Source: Sulfurimonas marina
GTDB lineage: Bacteria; Campylobacterota; Campylobacteria; Campylobacterales; Sulfurimonadaceae
Assembly (NCBI RefSeq): GCF_014905095.1
Contig: NZ_CP041165.1
Coordinates: 1,798,001-1,862,000, forward strand
Direction: 5' to 3'
Length of the DNA stretch: 64,000 nucleotides
Each line of letters opens with the position of its first letter. Within the stretch, counting starts at the first letter, position 1. Shown here one piece after another: positions 52,802-58,453 of this stretch. A model generated the notes under the pieces. The model was given only the letters and a program-made list of their open reading frames with translations. It had not been told where the DNA came from and ran no database searches. The translations under genes and the position numbers were made by a program.

Positions 52802-55800
52802 ATGGATAATCATACTCATTTTCATAGAATTACGAAGTCTAGTCATAGTTTTATAACTAATGTTTTTTTCCTCTTTAGCCTATTATTAGCTCTGTCATCA
52901 AATAGTTACGCAGCCCAAAGTCTTATTTACGATGCTAACGGTGGAACTGGAACCGTACCTCCTACTGTTACATATAATAACGGTAATACCGTAACTGTTT
53001 ATGATGATAATGGATTAACAAAAACAGGTTATGAGTTTGGCGGTTGGAATACAACTGCGAATGGTTCAGGAATCACCTATCAACCTGGCGATACATTTAC
53101 ATTTGGTACAACTGAGATAACACTTTATGCAAAATGGGATTCAAACACTTCCACGACACCTCCTACCCCTGTAACTTGTGCTAATGGTGCGACCCCAATT
53201 TATATAGATGAGACAAATCCAACTATAATAGGGGAAGGTCCATTAGATGATAGATGCTATGCCTTTCAATACACTAATCACGATGTTGGCGGTAGTGTGC
53301 AAATTTATTACTGGTCAGATTCTGCTATAGATATTAACCAAACTATTGACACCTTCAGTGAGTCCTTCGCTCTTTCAGCTAATACTGATACTACTAAGGG
53401 ACCATATACCATGGATGCTGGAGATAGCTTAGTACTTGAGGTAGAGAGTATCAATAACAATAAAGAATACTCTATCATTATAGATTATGTTCCCAATATA
53501 GAAACAGTTAATGACTCCTACATCGTTGAAGTAGGAGATACACTCCATGCTAATGTTTTATCCAACGACAATAATTCAACCAATATCTATATTGACACAA
53601 CTAATTCCAATCTACCTGGCATCCAAGCAGATGGTAGTTTTACATACAATGCTATTAGTGTAGGTGAACATCTTTATTACTATACTGCAACTAATGGTAC
53701 AGATTCACTAGAAGAAAATGTATTAATAACAGTCCTTTCAGATAATGCCTGGCCTAGTACTTGTTACGGCTACTATTACAGACAAGGTGACAATACAAAT
53801 TTACCTACAACAAATCCTCCGAGCATATCGGGTAACTTTGCTACAGATGAAAACATTTCGGTGACTGTTTATATTAAAAACGTAGCGGATGATTACAATA
53901 CGACTATTCCTTCAATGTCTTTAAATATCCAAGATCCATCAAGTGATCTCAGTTATTCAGGACCATCTACCATTTATAAAAGTACACCTACGGAAGTGAA
54001 TCAATACTTTTTTGCACAGTTTTTATTAACACCGCAAACAACAGATACAATTGACGAAGCACTTGATATGAATCTCACAATCTCTGGAACAACCGGCCGT
54101 TTAGGACATGAAATAGCACAATGTGGCGGAGGTCTTGATACTATTTATGCACCATTTTGGGGGAGATTCAATGTTTTATCAAATCTTGCTACTTTTCAAA
54201 ACTACTATAATCTTCCAACACAAACAACAAAAAGGTTTGAAGAGTTCAACATTGCCTCTTATGCATTAGGTAGTGACTTCACACAAGCATCTGAAGTTGC
54301 CACTATGGTAGGTGTTGAGATCATAGATACATCTGAAGTAGATATCAATATTGCTTGTCAAGATGAAACAGAGGGTCGTTCACTTACAGATAGAATATGG
54401 ATAAGATTTGGAGGTGGTAACAACTACGATACTAATATAAGTAGTCTCCTAGTTAATTATGATCTTTTAGAAGAAGCAATAAATGAAAATCCTAATAAAG
54501 AAAAGACCCTTACTCCGGAAGATTTTTATAAAGTTGCCAGTAAAAATGCTGCATACCGTATAAGTTATTATGGTGCAGCTGATGATGAACTTTTACAATA
54601 TACAGAAGCTGGGAATAAGTATGTTATCAATAACTTCCCAGAAGTGGTTCAAGATATCGGAACGTGTGTAGATGAAGTACTATCACCTGTTGGAAATTCT
54701 GATAATTTACAACCAACAATCCGGGTTGCCGTTGCATGTGGTAATGCCGGTAATACAGGGATTAGTTATAAACATTTACAAGCATGTTTAGAGTGTTTAC
54801 ATGGTAAGTCTTACGTATGTTCAAGAGACAACTTTGCGATCAGACCGGAAGCATTTATGATGCACCTTAAAGATCAAAACCAGTCTAATCCTGCATTACA
54901 AACAGATATAACAACACTAAGTCACTCAGGTTCCATAGATGCATCAGCTCCTGAACTTAGCCTTGCTGCCGGTTATAACTACAATCTTGAGATAAATGCT
55001 ACAAACCATATTGACAATGAATCATCTCCAGGGTACACGACATATCCTGCACCTGCAGTTTTTGAGTGGAATCCGGCCTCTACAGTTTTCTGTAACGATA
55101 CTTCAGACCATACTACTCCTGTTTATTTTTCAAATGGTGCAGCAGATCTAAATGCTTCAATTAATCAAGTTGGTAGATATACATTTGGCTTTAATGATAC
55201 TACTTGGACAAGTGTAGACAGCAATGAATCATTTCAGGCTCATCACACAGGGGATCATTTTAAGGCTAACCCTGACTTTGACTGTACACTAAATAGTTCT
55301 ATCGTCCAAGTACAAGGTTCTCCTTCGTTAAATGGTTGTACTATCTCTTCTCATCATATAAACCTTCAAACTGATGTAGTTTATAACGATTATAATATGA
55401 CTACACACCCTTATAAATTCACTGTTACAAACAATATTTTATCTGTCGGTCTTACAGATACACAAGGGAAAAATTTTGTTTATATGGCAAATATTGAGAA
55501 CAACGAAAGTGTATCTGTTCACCTAGATACCAATATATCTGCTCAAGGTTACAATGATAGTAACCTATCAAACTATACAGGTGAAATAAATGCCAGCGGT
55601 TTTGCATGTTATGCACAAGATACACTTTTCGGTATTGGTAAAAGTGCGACAACTTCTACTTTACTTCCTTTTAGATATCGTATTCACGATTTAAATGCAA
55701 CCGGTGCTATTATCGTGGCTTTTGATAATACTTATCCTGATATAAATAACTCTGTCATAGCTGAAGGTAATCTTACAGGAACTCCGATTGAGACAATACC

Positions 55801-56506
55801 AGCTGAATATTGGAGAAAAGCACAAAACGGTCAACTATCTCTTAGAACCAATCTTAACTTTGATCGTAATATCAGCCGTGCTGTAAACCCTGAAGATATT
55901 AACTATACCCGTTTCGATATGAATAACACGCTAAATTTATTCAGTGCAGATTTAATTAATAATAAATATACAGATATAAATAAAGACACCAATGAAATAG
56001 GTCAGGTTATCCATCATTATTATGGAAGAAGCCATGCTGCAAAACAAAGATATATAGTCCCAGATGACAGCCCTTATACGGCAAATCTTTTTTATGAAAT
56101 ATATTGTTATGACATAGGCTGTAACCTCTCATCTTTACCGAGTAGTTCACATACCGACGATATAAGATGGTACCGAAATACTCTACATAACACCTCAAAC
56201 GAAGGTAACATCACTAATGTAAGTGAAAAAGACTATACACATGTAACTACATCTAACTTAAACACTACAACAAATCCAAGTAAAGTTGATTTAAGCTATG
56301 ACGCCTATTTCGGATATCCATATCAAACAACTATGGATATGAATACTTCAAATTGGCTTATTTACAATCCAGATGATGAAAATGCAACTGTGAATGAATT
56401 TCAAGCAGAATTCAATAAAGCCGGAGATTGGAGTGGGGAGCATGAAACTAATTCTACGACAAATGTAGAAGCCGGAAAAAAAGCAAATAGGAGAATAAAT
56501 TGGTAA
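52802..56506 (+). CDS. Large secreted protein with InlB-type repeat, upstream of pilin-like genes
   Basis: This 1234-aa protein has a signal peptide (about 1-37, ending SNSYA). A Listeria-Bacteroides/InlB B-repeat domain follows (about 41-105: LIYDANGGTG, GYEFGGWNTTANGSG, ITLYAKW). A cadherin-like/Ig-like module (about 238-315; NDSYIVEVGDTLHANVLSND) comes next, then ~900 residues rich in Asn, Thr and Asp with scattered Cys and no family I recognise. There is no LPXTG, transmembrane anchor or obvious barrel. Its stop overlaps the first pilin-like gene by 7 bp, as PilY1-type tip proteins sit with minor pilins, so a pilus-tip adhesin role is inferred. AAAGGA precedes the ATG. Confidence 0.75.
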   Translation: MDNHTHFHRITKSSHSFITNVFFLFSLLLALSSNSYAAQSLIYDANGGTGTVPPTVTYNNGNTVTVYDDNGLTKTGYEFGGWNTTANGSGITYQPGDTFTFGTTEITLYAKWDSNTSTTPPTPVTCANGATPIYIDETNPTIIGEGPLDDRCYAFQYTNHDVGGSVQIYYWSDSAIDINQTIDTFSESFALSANTDTTKGPYTMDAGDSLVLEVESINNNKEYSIIIDYVPNIETVNDSYIVEVGDTLHANVLSNDNNSTNIYIDTTNSNLPGIQADGSFTYNAISVGEHLYYYTATNGTDSLEENVLITVLSDNAWPSTCYGYYYRQGDNTNLPTTNPPSISGNFATDENISVTVYIKNVADDYNTTIPSMSLNIQDPSSDLSYSGPSTIYKSTPTEVNQYFFAQFLLTPQTTDTIDEALDMNLTISGTTGRLGHEIAQCGGGLDTIYAPFWGRFNVLSNLATFQNYYNLPTQTTKRFEEFNIASYALGSDFTQASEVATMVGVEIIDTSEVDINIACQDETEGRSLTDRIWIRFGGGNNYDTNISSLLVNYDLLEEAINENPNKEKTLTPEDFYKVASKNAAYRISYYGAADDELLQYTEAGNKYVINNFPEVVQDIGTCVDEVLSPVGNSDNLQPTIRVAVACGNAGNTGISYKHLQACLECLHGKSYVCSRDNFAIRPEAFMMHLKDQNQSNPALQTDITTLSHSGSIDASAPELSLAAGYNYNLEINATNHIDNESSPGYTTYPAPAVFEWNPASTVFCNDTSDHTTPVYFSNGAADLNASINQVGRYTFGFNDTTWTSVDSNESFQAHHTGDHFKANPDFDCTLNSSIVQVQGSPSLNGCTISSHHINLQTDVVYNDYNMTTHPYKFTVTNNILSVGLTDTQGKNFVYMANIENNESVSVHLDTNISAQGYNDSNLSNYTGEINASGFACYAQDTLFGIGKSATTSTLLPFRYRIHDLNATGAIIVAFDNTYPDINNSVIAEGNLTGTPIETIPAEYWRKAQNGQLSLRTNLNFDRNISRAVNPEDINYTRFDMNNTLNLFSADLINNKYTDINKDTNEIGQVIHHYYGRSHAAKQRYIVPDDSPYTANLFYEIYCYDIGCNLSSLPSSSHTDDIRWYRNTLHNTSNEGNITNVSEKDYTHVTTSNLNTTTNPSKVDLSYDAYFGYPYQTTMDMNTSNWLIYNPDDENATVNEFQAEFNKAGDWSGEHETNSTTNVEAGKKANRRINW

Positions 56507-57105
56507 CAATGACACACTCTATCACAAAAAGATCTGCTTTTACAATGATTGAACTGATCTTTGCTATTGTAATTATTAGTATAGTTGTTTTATCCTTACC
56601 TACTTTTATGCAGGTATCTGAAAAGAATGTAGAAAACAACCTTGCACAGGAAGCTATATTTGCAGCTTCTGCAGAGTTAATGGGTTCAACAAGCGTATAC
56701 TGGGATGAAAACTCCATGCAAGATTCAAATTTTAGTGCATTATCAAGAGTTATAGATATTGGTGACGATTGTAATACTACTACAAAATTGCGTCCCGGTC
56801 ATATCAATCAACCGTTTCACAGACGATGCTTAGATGATCTTACTACTACTGCAGCCAATACTAGTGGTGGTGATGCTTATAATCTGAATGACCTTGTACA
56901 TACACCTCATACTGCTTTCACTCAAACAAGTGATGCTTCTGGATATAAAACAAATTATAATAGTGCTTTAAGCGTTACTCAAAATAATGATATCAAAACT
57001 GTTACAGTTACTATTACAGATCCTGACGGTAATGTGGTAACTAGATTAAAATCACAAATAGCAAATATCGGTGAAGTTGAACCATATAAGAAAAGGATGT
57101 TCTAA
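56500..57105 (+). CDS. Prepilin-like protein 1 (type IV pilin/pseudopilin N-terminus)
   Basis: This 201-aa protein has a short basic leader and the type IV class III signal KRSAFTMIELIFAIVIISI. It has Phe at +1 and Glu at +5, though Ala rather than Gly precedes the cleavage site. A hydrophobic helix to about residue 40 is followed by a soluble domain with a C-proximal TVTVTITDPDGN strand. A TTG start is chosen: AGGAG lies 6 bases before it, whereas the ATG three codons later is 15 bases away. It overlaps the large secreted-protein gene by 7 bp and the next gene by 1 bp. Confidence 0.83.
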   Translation: MVTMTHSITKRSAFTMIELIFAIVIISIVVLSLPTFMQVSEKNVENNLAQEAIFAASAELMGSTSVYWDENSMQDSNFSALSRVIDIGDDCNTTTKLRPGHINQPFHRRCLDDLTTTAANTSGGDAYNLNDLVHTPHTAFTQTSDASGYKTNYNSALSVTQNNDIKTVTVTITDPDGNVVTRLKSQIANIGEVEPYKKRMF

Positions 57106-58010
57106 TGAAAAAAAATGCTTTTACAATGTTAGAACTAATATTTGTCATCGTAGTGATGGGTATACTTGCAAAATTTGGTATAGAGCTTCTTGCTCAAATA
57201 TATAATAACTTTATATACAATAGTGTCAACAGTTCTCTTCAAGAAAAAAGTCAAAATGCAGTAGAAATAGTTGGAGGACGTTTACAATATAGAATTAAAG
57301 ACTCAATCATTGCAAGACAAAGTGCAGATGATACTAACTTTACCTCATTGTCTACTGCTAATAGTGACGATTATAATATACTTGAATGGGTGGCAACTGA
57401 TATTGAAGGCTTCAGAGGGCAAACACAACCTTTATGGAGTGGTATAATTGACCTTGATGACTCAAATGCAACCCTGCTTATAACTCCAGAAACAAATACA
57501 ACAGCCATAGATGCCTTAATAGATACACTTTCTGATGGTAATTCTGATTTAACAGATGCTGCTATATATTTTCCCGGTTCAAATACAAATGTACTTACAG
57601 GTTATGGTTGGCAGCGTCCTGCAATAAAATTTACAGACCAAAACCATACGATGCACCCTATAAAAGCAGGTACGAACATTTATGAACTTATCCCAAGAAA
57701 TGGAGATACTAATGATGATAATAACCTAAGTGGTATTGATGTATATGAAAACTATCAGCTTGCATGGACTGCTTATGCAGTTGGTATAAACAATTATGAT
57801 GATACAAATAAAACAGGTACTCTCACACTTTGGTACGATTATCAGCCATGGGAAGGTGAAAAATATACTGACGGTACTCCAAGAATACTTATGGAAGATG
57901 TTAGTTCATTTAGATTTAGAGCACTAGGTTCTGTTGTACAAATTCAAGTGTGTACAAAGTCAGATCTCGTAGAGGAATACTCAATATGCAAAGAAAAAAC
58001 AATATTTTAA
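57105..58010 (+). CDS. Prepilin-like protein 2 (PilW/GspJ-like)
   Basis: This 301-aa protein has an N-terminal class III signal NAFTMLELIFVIVVMGILAKF (again Ala at -1, Phe at +1, Glu at +5) and a long helix. The large soluble domain (about 60-295) has the size and late position of minor pilins PilW/GspJ. CTKSDLVEEYSICKEK near the end has two Cys that may pair. Its 3' end overlaps the PilX-like gene by 25 bp. Confidence 0.8.
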   Translation: MKKNAFTMLELIFVIVVMGILAKFGIELLAQIYNNFIYNSVNSSLQEKSQNAVEIVGGRLQYRIKDSIIARQSADDTNFTSLSTANSDDYNILEWVATDIEGFRGQTQPLWSGIIDLDDSNATLLITPETNTTAIDALIDTLSDGNSDLTDAAIYFPGSNTNVLTGYGWQRPAIKFTDQNHTMHPIKAGTNIYELIPRNGDTNDDNNLSGIDVYENYQLAWTAYAVGINNYDDTNKTGTLTLWYDYQPWEGEKYTDGTPRILMEDVSSFRFRALGSVVQIQVCTKSDLVEEYSICKEKTIF

Positions 58011-58453
58011 ATAAACATAGAAACGGCCTGGCAATGATTATGGCAATTATCATTATGGTTGCGCTTGGTACCATTGGAGCCTTGTCTTTAAAACTAATTT
58101 CGCAAACTACTAAAACAACGACAGATATTTATCTGTATGAGCAGGCATCTATCTATGCAAAAAGTGCGGCAGAACTTGCACTTTTAGACATTGCTAAATA
58201 TGGCTGTTCTAATAACTATGACGTAACCTTTGGTAATAGCACAGAAATTCAGTATGATGCAAATGTAACTATGCAGTATATATATACCAACAATTCCGGA
58301 CCTGCTGGATGTAATATCTATACTCAAACGACACCAGTTACAACTACTGAACAAAACGGTTCTGTAATGATGGATATTACCGTTACACTAAGTGATGAAA
58401 ACTTAACTACAGAACCAATAAGATACTTTAGAAGAACTATCCAAAAACTCTAA
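57986..58453 (+). CDS. Prepilin-like protein 3 (PilX-like)
   Basis: This 155-aa protein has a basic leader (MQRKNNILNKHRNG) followed by a hydrophobic helix LAMIMAIIIMVALGTIGALS without Glu at +5. This is the PilX/GspK pattern; proteins of that type cap the pilus tip and lack Glu5. TTTDIYLYEQASIYAKSAAELAL fits the PilX N-terminal domain. The longer frame from 57950 was rejected because AGAGGA precedes the ATG at 57986. It is the last gene of the four-gene operon. Confidence 0.8.
   Translation: MQRKNNILNKHRNGLAMIMAIIIMVALGTIGALSLKLISQTTKTTTDIYLYEQASIYAKSAAELALLDIAKYGCSNNYDVTFGNSTEIQYDANVTMQYIYTNNSGPAGCNIYTQTTPVTTTEQNGSVMMDITVTLSDENLTTEPIRYFRRTIQKL

What the first reader, a model, noticed from the sequence alone, without database searches (positions are those of the whole stretch)
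52802..58453. Four-gene operon: giant secreted protein with InlB-type repeat plus three minor-pilin-like proteins
The sequence shows a 1234-aa exported protein whose gene overlaps a prepilin gene, followed by two more pilin-like genes with overlaps (PilW/GspJ-like and a Glu5-lacking PilX/GspK-like one). Established systems of this shape (fimU-pilV-W-X-Y1) build a pilus tip complex with a large adhesin. Here the large protein is not PilY1-like: it has an InlB B-repeat, one cadherin-like module and ~900 residues I could not assign. The prepilins have Ala in place of Gly before the cleavage site. I infer an undescribed tip adhesin or pseudopilus-secreted effector family.
Basis: partly seen in the sequence, partly recalled or inferred. 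Interest (0 to 1): 0.75.

Follow-up and report, generated by a model that had tools for sequence, protein, structure and literature searches.

The report
MSHA-type pilus tip adhesin operon
A sulfur-oxidising bacterium carries a gene set that probably builds the tip of a retractable surface hair: three small tip proteins and one very large, fast-changing protein that is a distant cousin of MshQ, the little-understood putative adhesin of cholera-type MSHA pili.

Summary
The four genes are real: a 1234-aa exported protein (BIG) and three minor-pilin-like proteins (P2, P3, P4), overlapping head to tail. The order is conserved: 44 of 49 named loci hold all four in a row, and the other 5 are cut by contig ends. 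BIG's C-terminal region occurs in 189 of 298 genomes of the order.

Sulfurimonas relatives exceed Pfam's DUF6701 cut-off, and an Aeromonas mshQ piece is DUF6701 over the whole model. The window's own protein does not reach it. The genome's pilus secretin passes the MshL cut-off. P3 has the GspJ minor-pseudopilin fold.

Best reading: P2-P3-P4 form a GspI/J/K-like tip on which BIG docks by its constant C-terminus (terminal Trp in 83 of 84 copies), while its N-terminus varies and attaches. Campylobacter-like genomes keep a shortened trio without BIG at the place of ctsT. Some genomes hold several BIGs, tandem or dispersed.

Tip position, docking and adhesion are inferred; none was tested. New variant of a known kind.

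The parts
52802..56506 (+). BIG: 1234-aa exported protein, distant relative of MshQ; proposed tip adhesin
   Evidence: ORF; relatives in 189 of 298 genomes of the order; signal-peptide-like start (about residues 1-38) read by eye
52925..53134 (+). InlB B-repeat / List_Bact_rpt (BIG residues 42-111)
   Evidence: PF09479, 41.9 bits
54809..56026 (+). MshQ/DUF6701-related core of BIG (about residues 670-1075)
   Evidence: aligned with the DUF6701-positive Sulfurimonas relative L177 (blastp E 1.8e-38, residues 670-1234; DUF6701 at 859-1213 of L177); end mapped approximately; no direct DUF6701 hit in the window
55754..56503 (+). conserved C-terminal 250 residues of BIG, including the tail ending NRRINW
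   Evidence: alignment A1; last 26 residues pLDDT below 50; terminal Trp
56500..57105 (+). P2: minor pilin, GspI/MshD position
   Evidence: N_methyl 23.1 bits over cut-off; NCBIfam gspI below cut-off
57105..58010 (+). P3: GspJ/PilW/MshO-type minor pilin
   Evidence: model pLDDT 74.2; seven pilin entries, most of them GspJ-type pseudopilins, at Z 10.0-11.1
57986..58453 (+). P4: GspK/PilX/MshP-like minor pilin without Glu5
   Evidence: sequence; weak GspK hit; homologs in the same place in Campylobacter-like loci

Best explanation
The operon encodes the tip of the genome's MSHA-type, probably retractable type IV pilus. P2, P3 and P4 are GspI-, GspJ- and GspK-like minor pilins that prime the filament and stay at its tip. 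BIG is a large secreted rod of beta domains, a distant relative of MshQ, that caps them: its constant C-terminal domain and tail (ending NRRxxW) dock on the minor pilins and its fast-changing N-terminus attaches to a surface or partner. Supported by computation here: gene order, pilin nature of P2 and P3, GspJ fold of P3, an MshL-type secretin and two PilT-family ATPases in the genome, a remote MshQ relationship through relatives, constant C-terminus and variable N-terminus. Inferred: which pilus the operon serves, export through it, tip position, docking by the tail, and adhesion.
For: Four-gene order in 44 of 49 named loci, the other 5 cut by contig ends, and in 29 of 36 unnamed regions by BLAST. 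186 of 189 BIG-positive genomes have a P3 hit at E of at most 1e-15 against 23 of 109 BIG-negative ones (hand count; Fisher p 6e-49; phylogeny not corrected for). Secretin over the MshL equivalog cut-off, 269.2 against 250.2 bits, and two ATPases over the PilT-family cut-off. DUF6701 over cut-off by hmmscan in relatives L147, L176, L177, L178 and L185; the Aeromonas mshQ piece 333 bits, positions 11-577 of 577. P3 fold. Median pairwise identity of the last 230 residues 46%, of residues 36-265 26%, in 32 proteins; the N-terminal alignment scores are close to shuffled ones (median 0.13 against 0.10 per residue, 27% of pairs above the shuffled 95% point). Terminal Trp in 83 of 84 copies.
Against: The window's BIG has no DUF6701 hit whole or trimmed. 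A profile of the Sulfurimonas-type proteins alone barely scores MshQ (0.9 bits) and hhalign gives 2% and 0.1%; only a profile with divergent relatives, most chosen for their DUF6701 hits, finds it (40.9 bits). P2 and P3 profiles score the genome's major pilins as high as Aeromonas MshD and MshO. BIG is first in the operon and far from the secretin locus, unlike mshQ. Dispersed BIG copies have no pilin neighbour. One pilin-adjacent BIG-like copy ends in Arg (L182) and one orphan in Tyr (L064). The V. cholerae mshQ deletion lowers surface pili but is not needed for retraction (PMC7096442, passages), so a strict priming role is not implied.
Confidence: 0.7

Rival explanations
1. DNA-uptake tip: the trio with BIG is the tip of a transformation pilus, and BIG is a DNA receptor or carrier rather than a surface adhesin.
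For: In three Campylobacter-like (g29) loci the same place, beside proC-fliW-bamD-lon, holds a shortened trio, matching by position and size ctsT (cj1077, 100 aa, next to proC cj1076), listed among C. jejuni transformation genes (PMC8308473, passages). A pilin that binds DNA at a pilus tip is described in Thermus (PMC6561018, abstract and outline).
Against: BIG itself was not found in g29, which by inference are the transformable ones. BIG's Asp/Asn-rich sequence and repeat or lectin-like N-terminal domains in relatives look like adhesins. ctsT has no homolog listed in Aliarcobacter butzleri in the same paper.
Confidence: 0.12
2. Type II secretion: P2-P4 are extra pseudopilins of the genome's T2SS and BIG is its substrate, a secreted effector.
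For: P3 has the GspJ pseudopilin fold and a T2SS-like cluster is present by eye (L169).
Against: The T2SS-like cluster carries its own five pilin-like genes, and no enzyme or effector family was found in BIG. BIG-positive genomes nearly always have an MshL-type match (all but G203 and G282 at E 1e-20), though that match alone is not proof of use.
Confidence: 0.1
3. BIG is an independent surface protein (its own export and anchoring) that merely sits next to pilin genes.
For: Copies without pilin neighbours exist (L061, L064, L143-L147, L178-L180, L183).
Against: BIG and strong P3 hits track each other over 298 genomes, and the C-terminal tail stays constant in orphan copies too (20 of 21 end in Trp).
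Confidence: 0.08

Closest known systems
MshQ with minor pilins MshD, MshO, MshP of MSHA pili (Vibrio, Shewanella, Aeromonas); Pfam DUF6701 covers the MshQ C-terminal part
   Same: Large non-pilin protein next to GspI/J/K-like pilins; MshL-type secretin in the genome; relatives of BIG over the DUF6701 cut-off; MshQ length also varies between strains (PMC7439477, passages).
   Different: BIG comes first, not last, and the operon stands apart from the secretin locus; the window protein is too divergent for DUF6701 itself; terminal NRRxxW tail, whereas the Aeromonas piece ends YRREVLH; several copies per genome in some families.
PilY1/PilC with FimU-PilV-W-X (T4aP tip complex)
   Same: Large secreted protein plus minor pilins; PilY1 caps them, its C-terminal domain towards the pilus and the variable part outwards (PMC7541494, passages).
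   Different: No PilY1 family match in BIG.
T2SS tip complex GspI-GspJ-GspK
   Same: P3 fold at Z 10-11 with XcpW and EpsJ; P4 lacks Glu5 as GspK-like proteins do (recalled).
   Different: The genome's T2SS-like cluster has separate pilin genes.
Campylobacter jejuni ctsT locus (Cj1077 and neighbours)
   Same: Same chromosomal place and three pilin-like genes in g29 genomes; P4-position proteins score 27.0-48.7 bits with the P4 profile.
   Different: Shorter pilins, no BIG. That g29 is the C. jejuni group, and the names Cj1078 and Cj1079, are inference and recall.

Membership tests
DUF6701 / MshQ (PF20419) | Score over Pfam's gathering cut-off by the window protein | tested here: not met
   No match whole or trimmed to residues 600-1234; none in its genome.
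DUF6701 / MshQ (PF20419) | Homology through relatives | tested here: met
   Window BIG aligns with L177 over residues 670-1234 (E 1.8e-38); L177 has DUF6701 at 44.7 bits. hmmscan gave none for L180's copy and for L184 although the genome search scored those places 81.4 and 43.4 bits.
MSHA-type pilus | MshL-type secretin | tested here: met
   TIGR02519 269.2 bits over 250.2.
MSHA-type pilus | Other mandatory parts mshA, mshE, mshG, mshM (list in PMC6668835, passage) | tested here: inconclusive
   Pilin, PilB/GspE-type ATPase, GspF-type platform and an AAA ATPase found, but only general families matched.
MSHA-type pilus | Tip pilins and mshQ in one operon, mshQ last | tested here: not met
   Here BIG is first and the operon lies about 1.1 Mb from the secretin.
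PilY1/PilC | PilY1 family domain | tested here: not met
   No such Pfam match at E up to 1 for the whole protein, or up to 10 for residues 600-1234.
GspJ/PilW minor pilins (P3) | Fold | tested here: met
   Seven pilin entries, six of them T2SS pseudopilin structures, at Z 10.0-11.1, next unrelated row 5.1; Foldseek alone found nothing at E of at most 0.001.
GspK/PilX/MshP minor pilins (P4) | No Glu5 and profile similarity | tested here: inconclusive
   Glu5 absent; GspK NCBIfam E 0.02, far below cut-off; P4 profile: Aeromonas MshP position 18.4 bits, own GspK-like 9.3, own major-type pilins 10.1-13.9.
Tip adhesin | Located on pilus tips, binds a surface | not testable with these tools
   Needs experiments.

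The most novel reading that the evidence does not exclude
In Campylobacterota one conserved minor-pilin tip is fitted with interchangeable giant adhesins that all plug in by the same short C-terminal tail ending in Trp. Some genomes keep several such adhesins, tandem or scattered, as a repertoire; Campylobacter- and Arcobacter-like lines lost the adhesin, and at least in Campylobacter the bare, shortened tip became the DNA-uptake tip of the ctsT locus.
Probability: 0.35. Interest if true: 0.75.

Novelty: new variant of a known kind. Interest (0 to 1): 0.55.

Why it matters
A recent review leaves MSHA out of its component table as too poorly characterised, and MshQ is named among MSHA components of unknown function (PMC10191384 and PMC9815625, passages). 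A large set of MshQ-related proteins with a constant C-terminus, a variable N-terminus and natural multi-copy genomes makes it directly testable how the large protein sits on the pilus tip. The same locus offers a concrete origin for the three pilin-like genes at the Campylobacter ctsT place: a stripped MSHA-type tip.

Tried and rejected
Enzyme or effector reading of residues 320-1234: the model of residues 318-1234 (mean pLDDT 75.6) matched only generic Ig-like or fibronectin-like and other long beta chains in the PDB, TM-scores at most 0.32 in the 50 rows shown, 10 rows at E of at most 0.001; one row is a glycosidase (7nit, TM 0.09), not taken as a match. No PDB sequence matched the profile; phmmer's best was E 0.14 to a nanobody. 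PilY1: no family match. Ala at -1 as a special mark: rejected.

Terminal Trp as a by-product of the overlap between its TGG codon and the next gene's start: considered and disfavoured. Of 21 copies whose next gene is known and is not a pilin (L061, L064; L139 first, L140 first, L141 upstream, L142 first; L143 two, L144 two, L145, L146, L147; L178, L179, L180 three, L183 three) 20 end in Trp and L064 in Tyr. L148 was left out, its contig ends behind the gene. In the first set (L031-L066 with the window) 35 of 37 end in Trp; one runs off its contig, one is L064. Some of these copies may be the same genomes under a G handle and a record name.

Direct profile comparison with one MshQ piece failed (2.2%; 0.1%; unrelated control 0.04%). 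P3 against Aeromonas MshO gave 94.7%, but only over the first 75 columns that pilins share. Plasmid searches with two BIG relatives found only N-terminal matches, in Thermus, Deinococcus, Priestia and a few others. Foldseek with P3: nothing at E of at most 0.001; only the VIA second look showed the GspJ fold. Promoter and terminator scans at chance level (28 against 31.7; 2 against 2.7). In L163 and L164 (f11 g38, g46) no pilin gene stood beside proC. L159 was fetched but its listing was cut from view and is not used.

Literature: no held paper has DUF6701; 'minor pilin' with Campylobacterota gave one unrelated paper; the listings show none on an MshQ-like protein in Campylobacterota by title and abstract. 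MSH systems in Epsilon-proteobacteria are already in print (PMC6668835, passages), and Thiovulum pili genes were placed nearest T4aP, T4bP and MSH types (PMC9938260, passages).
Full report
What is there. Window 52802-58453 holds four plus-strand genes: BIG (1234 aa), P2 (201 aa), P3 (301 aa) and P4 (155 aa from ATG 57986). They overlap by 7, 1 and 25 bases. bamD and lon lie on one side, hpf and recG on the other (bamD and hpf by Pfam; lon and recG named from sequence). The genome is one 2.26-Mb contig. The named relatives are mostly Sulfurimonas, so the window is taken to be from that genus.

Family and synteny. BIG matched 34 of 59 other genomes in the first survey: 28 of 36 of the same genus and 6 of 23 from other families (own genome left out). 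Of 36 fetched regions, 29 have all four genes by BLAST, one more (L065) has a pilin in the P2 place that BLAST missed, four are cut by contig ends (L035, L044, L048, L051) and two (L061, L064) have BIG without pilins. In the named set 44 of 49 loci show BIG-P2-P3-P4 and 5 are cut by contig ends.

Order-wide survey. A profile of the last 250 residues hits 189 of 298 genomes of the order, among them all 17 other genomes of the genus in that sample. The P3 profile hits 282 of 298, many only weakly through the shared pilin start. At E of at most 1e-15 I count 209; 186 of the 189 BIG-positive genomes are among them, the others being G319, G047 and G109. That leaves 23 genomes with a strong P3 hit and no BIG hit; several are incomplete or divergent genomes. 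Genomes not printed were counted as BIG-negative, as its tally implies.

Shape of BIG. In 32 full-length proteins the last 230 residues have a median pairwise identity of 46%, a middle stretch 32% and residues 36-265 26%; the last are close to shuffled sequences in alignment score. N-terminal domains differ: Calx-beta in 7, DUF11 in 5, GEVED in 3 and the InlB repeat in 1 of 34 members. Two members of 4078 and 4061 aa carry 18 and 19 DUF11 stretches and a laminin-G-like domain. The model of residues 318-1234 is mostly beta, mean pLDDT 75.6; the last 26 residues are below 50.

The tail. The last residue is Trp in 46 of 46, 24 of 24 and 13 of 14 copies of three sets. The Trp codon overlaps the P2 start in the usual arrangement, so copies not followed by a pilin gene are the control: 20 of 21 end in Trp. 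A conserved tail that is unordered alone suggests a binding tail; that is inference.

Pilus type. The genome has a secretin over the MshL equivalog cut-off with an extension ATPase and platform protein nearby, two ATPases over the PilT-family cut-off, and pilin genes elsewhere. A T2SS-like and a Tad-like cluster were read by eye only. Across the order MshL passes its cut-off in 198 of 298 genomes and in 0 of 14 control genomes, though 5 controls match below it. All 11 genomes of g50 (Helicobacter-like, my inference) lack a match, and family f9 (Arcobacter-like, my inference) has only weaker ones; neither shows BIG.

Link to MshQ. In the genome search DUF6701 matches 62 of 298 genomes at E of at most 0.01, 54 over the cut-off; several of these places are BIG loci, three of them in Sulfurimonas (G271, G280, G307). 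By hmmscan L147, L176, L177, L178 and L185 are over the cut-off, L146 just under it, while L180's copy, L184, L031 and the window are not; for L180 and L184 the two programs disagree. An Aeromonas caviae MSHA locus, recognised by its MshL (279.1 bits) and the pilin genes after it, ends in a gene whose last piece is DUF6701 over the whole model (333 bits). A profile of the window protein with nine relatives finds that piece at 40.9 bits against 0.4 for the best of 200 shuffles; a profile of the Sulfurimonas-type set alone gives 0.9 bits and hhalign 2%. I therefore call BIG MshQ-related and do not file it as a DUF6701 member.

The pilins. P3's best structural matches are seven pilin entries at Z 10.0-11.1, six from T2SS pseudopilins; the next row is 5.1. 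P4 has no Glu5; its profile scores Campylobacter-like P4 positions at 27.0-48.7 bits, the Aeromonas MshP position at 18.4, an Arcobacter-like one at 11.1 and own major-type pilins at 10.1-13.9. P2 and P3 profiles do not separate MshD and MshO from major pilins, so these assignments rest on position and, for P3, on fold.

Campylobacter. In three f11/g29 loci (L160-L162) the place reads lon-bamD-fliW-proC and then three short pilin-like genes of 97-100, 208-242 and 144-150 aa, without BIG. A published table lists ctsT (cj1077, 100 aa) and proC (cj1076) among C. jejuni transformation-related genes, ctsT in the category 'Others' and absent from Aliarcobacter butzleri (PMC8308473, passages). That g29 is the C. 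jejuni group is inference. Other members of f11 (g11) do have BIG, in L141 twice in tandem.

Copies. More than one BIG stands before the trio in L139, L140 (with proC between), L141 and L142; dispersed copies without pilins occur in families f7 and f16, and in G104 the trio stands alone in L149. In eight pairs of neighbouring copies the last 230 residues are 43-98% identical and residues 36-265 20-54%, as expected if different heads share one socket; this is a reading, not a test.

How it most likely works. [quoted passage not shown] Loss of the putative adhesin MshQ lowers surface MSHA pili but not their retraction in V. cholerae (PMC7096442, passages). By analogy P2-P3-P4 prime the pilus, BIG caps them by its C-terminus and its N-terminus attaches. 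Computed here: gene order, relationships, the fold of P3. Inferred: which pilus, tip position, docking and adhesion.

Novelty. MSH machines in Epsilon-proteobacteria and a putative MshQ adhesin are known. What I did not find in the searches named under Tried and rejected is an MshQ-related protein in Campylobacterota, its separate operon with the ctsT-type trio, its multi-copy form, or the NRRxxW tail.

Noticed in passing
L060 1481-2527 and L116 1697-2743: P4 reads through into hpf as one 348-aa ORF in this genome (G024): a fusion or an assembly error.
   Followed up: no
L151 1778-14014, L152 6166-18351: BIG relatives of about 4060-4080 aa with 18-19 DUF11 stretches and a laminin-G-like domain.
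   Followed up: partly
L182 2112-9304: A second type of cluster with a DUF6701-positive BIG-like protein ending in Arg, four pilin-like genes and PilN/PilO-like neighbours (by eye).
   Followed up: no
L186 30635-37171: mshQ of this Aeromonas caviae record is cut by two insertion-sequence-like ORFs; the record is a 4.94-Mb 'plasmid', so probably a chromosome.
   Followed up: no
L118: A 3.8-kb contig labelled Bacteroidales encodes a BIG relative; probably a mis-binned contig.
   Followed up: no
L059 3068-3655: An extra pilin-like gene beside the recG-like gene in one Sulfurimonas genome (G030).
   Followed up: no
L176 2541-6170: The N-terminal part (residues 24-551) of this BIG resembles surface proteins on Thermus, Deinococcus and Priestia plasmids (E down to 8e-39), a hint of exchanged head modules.
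   Followed up: partly
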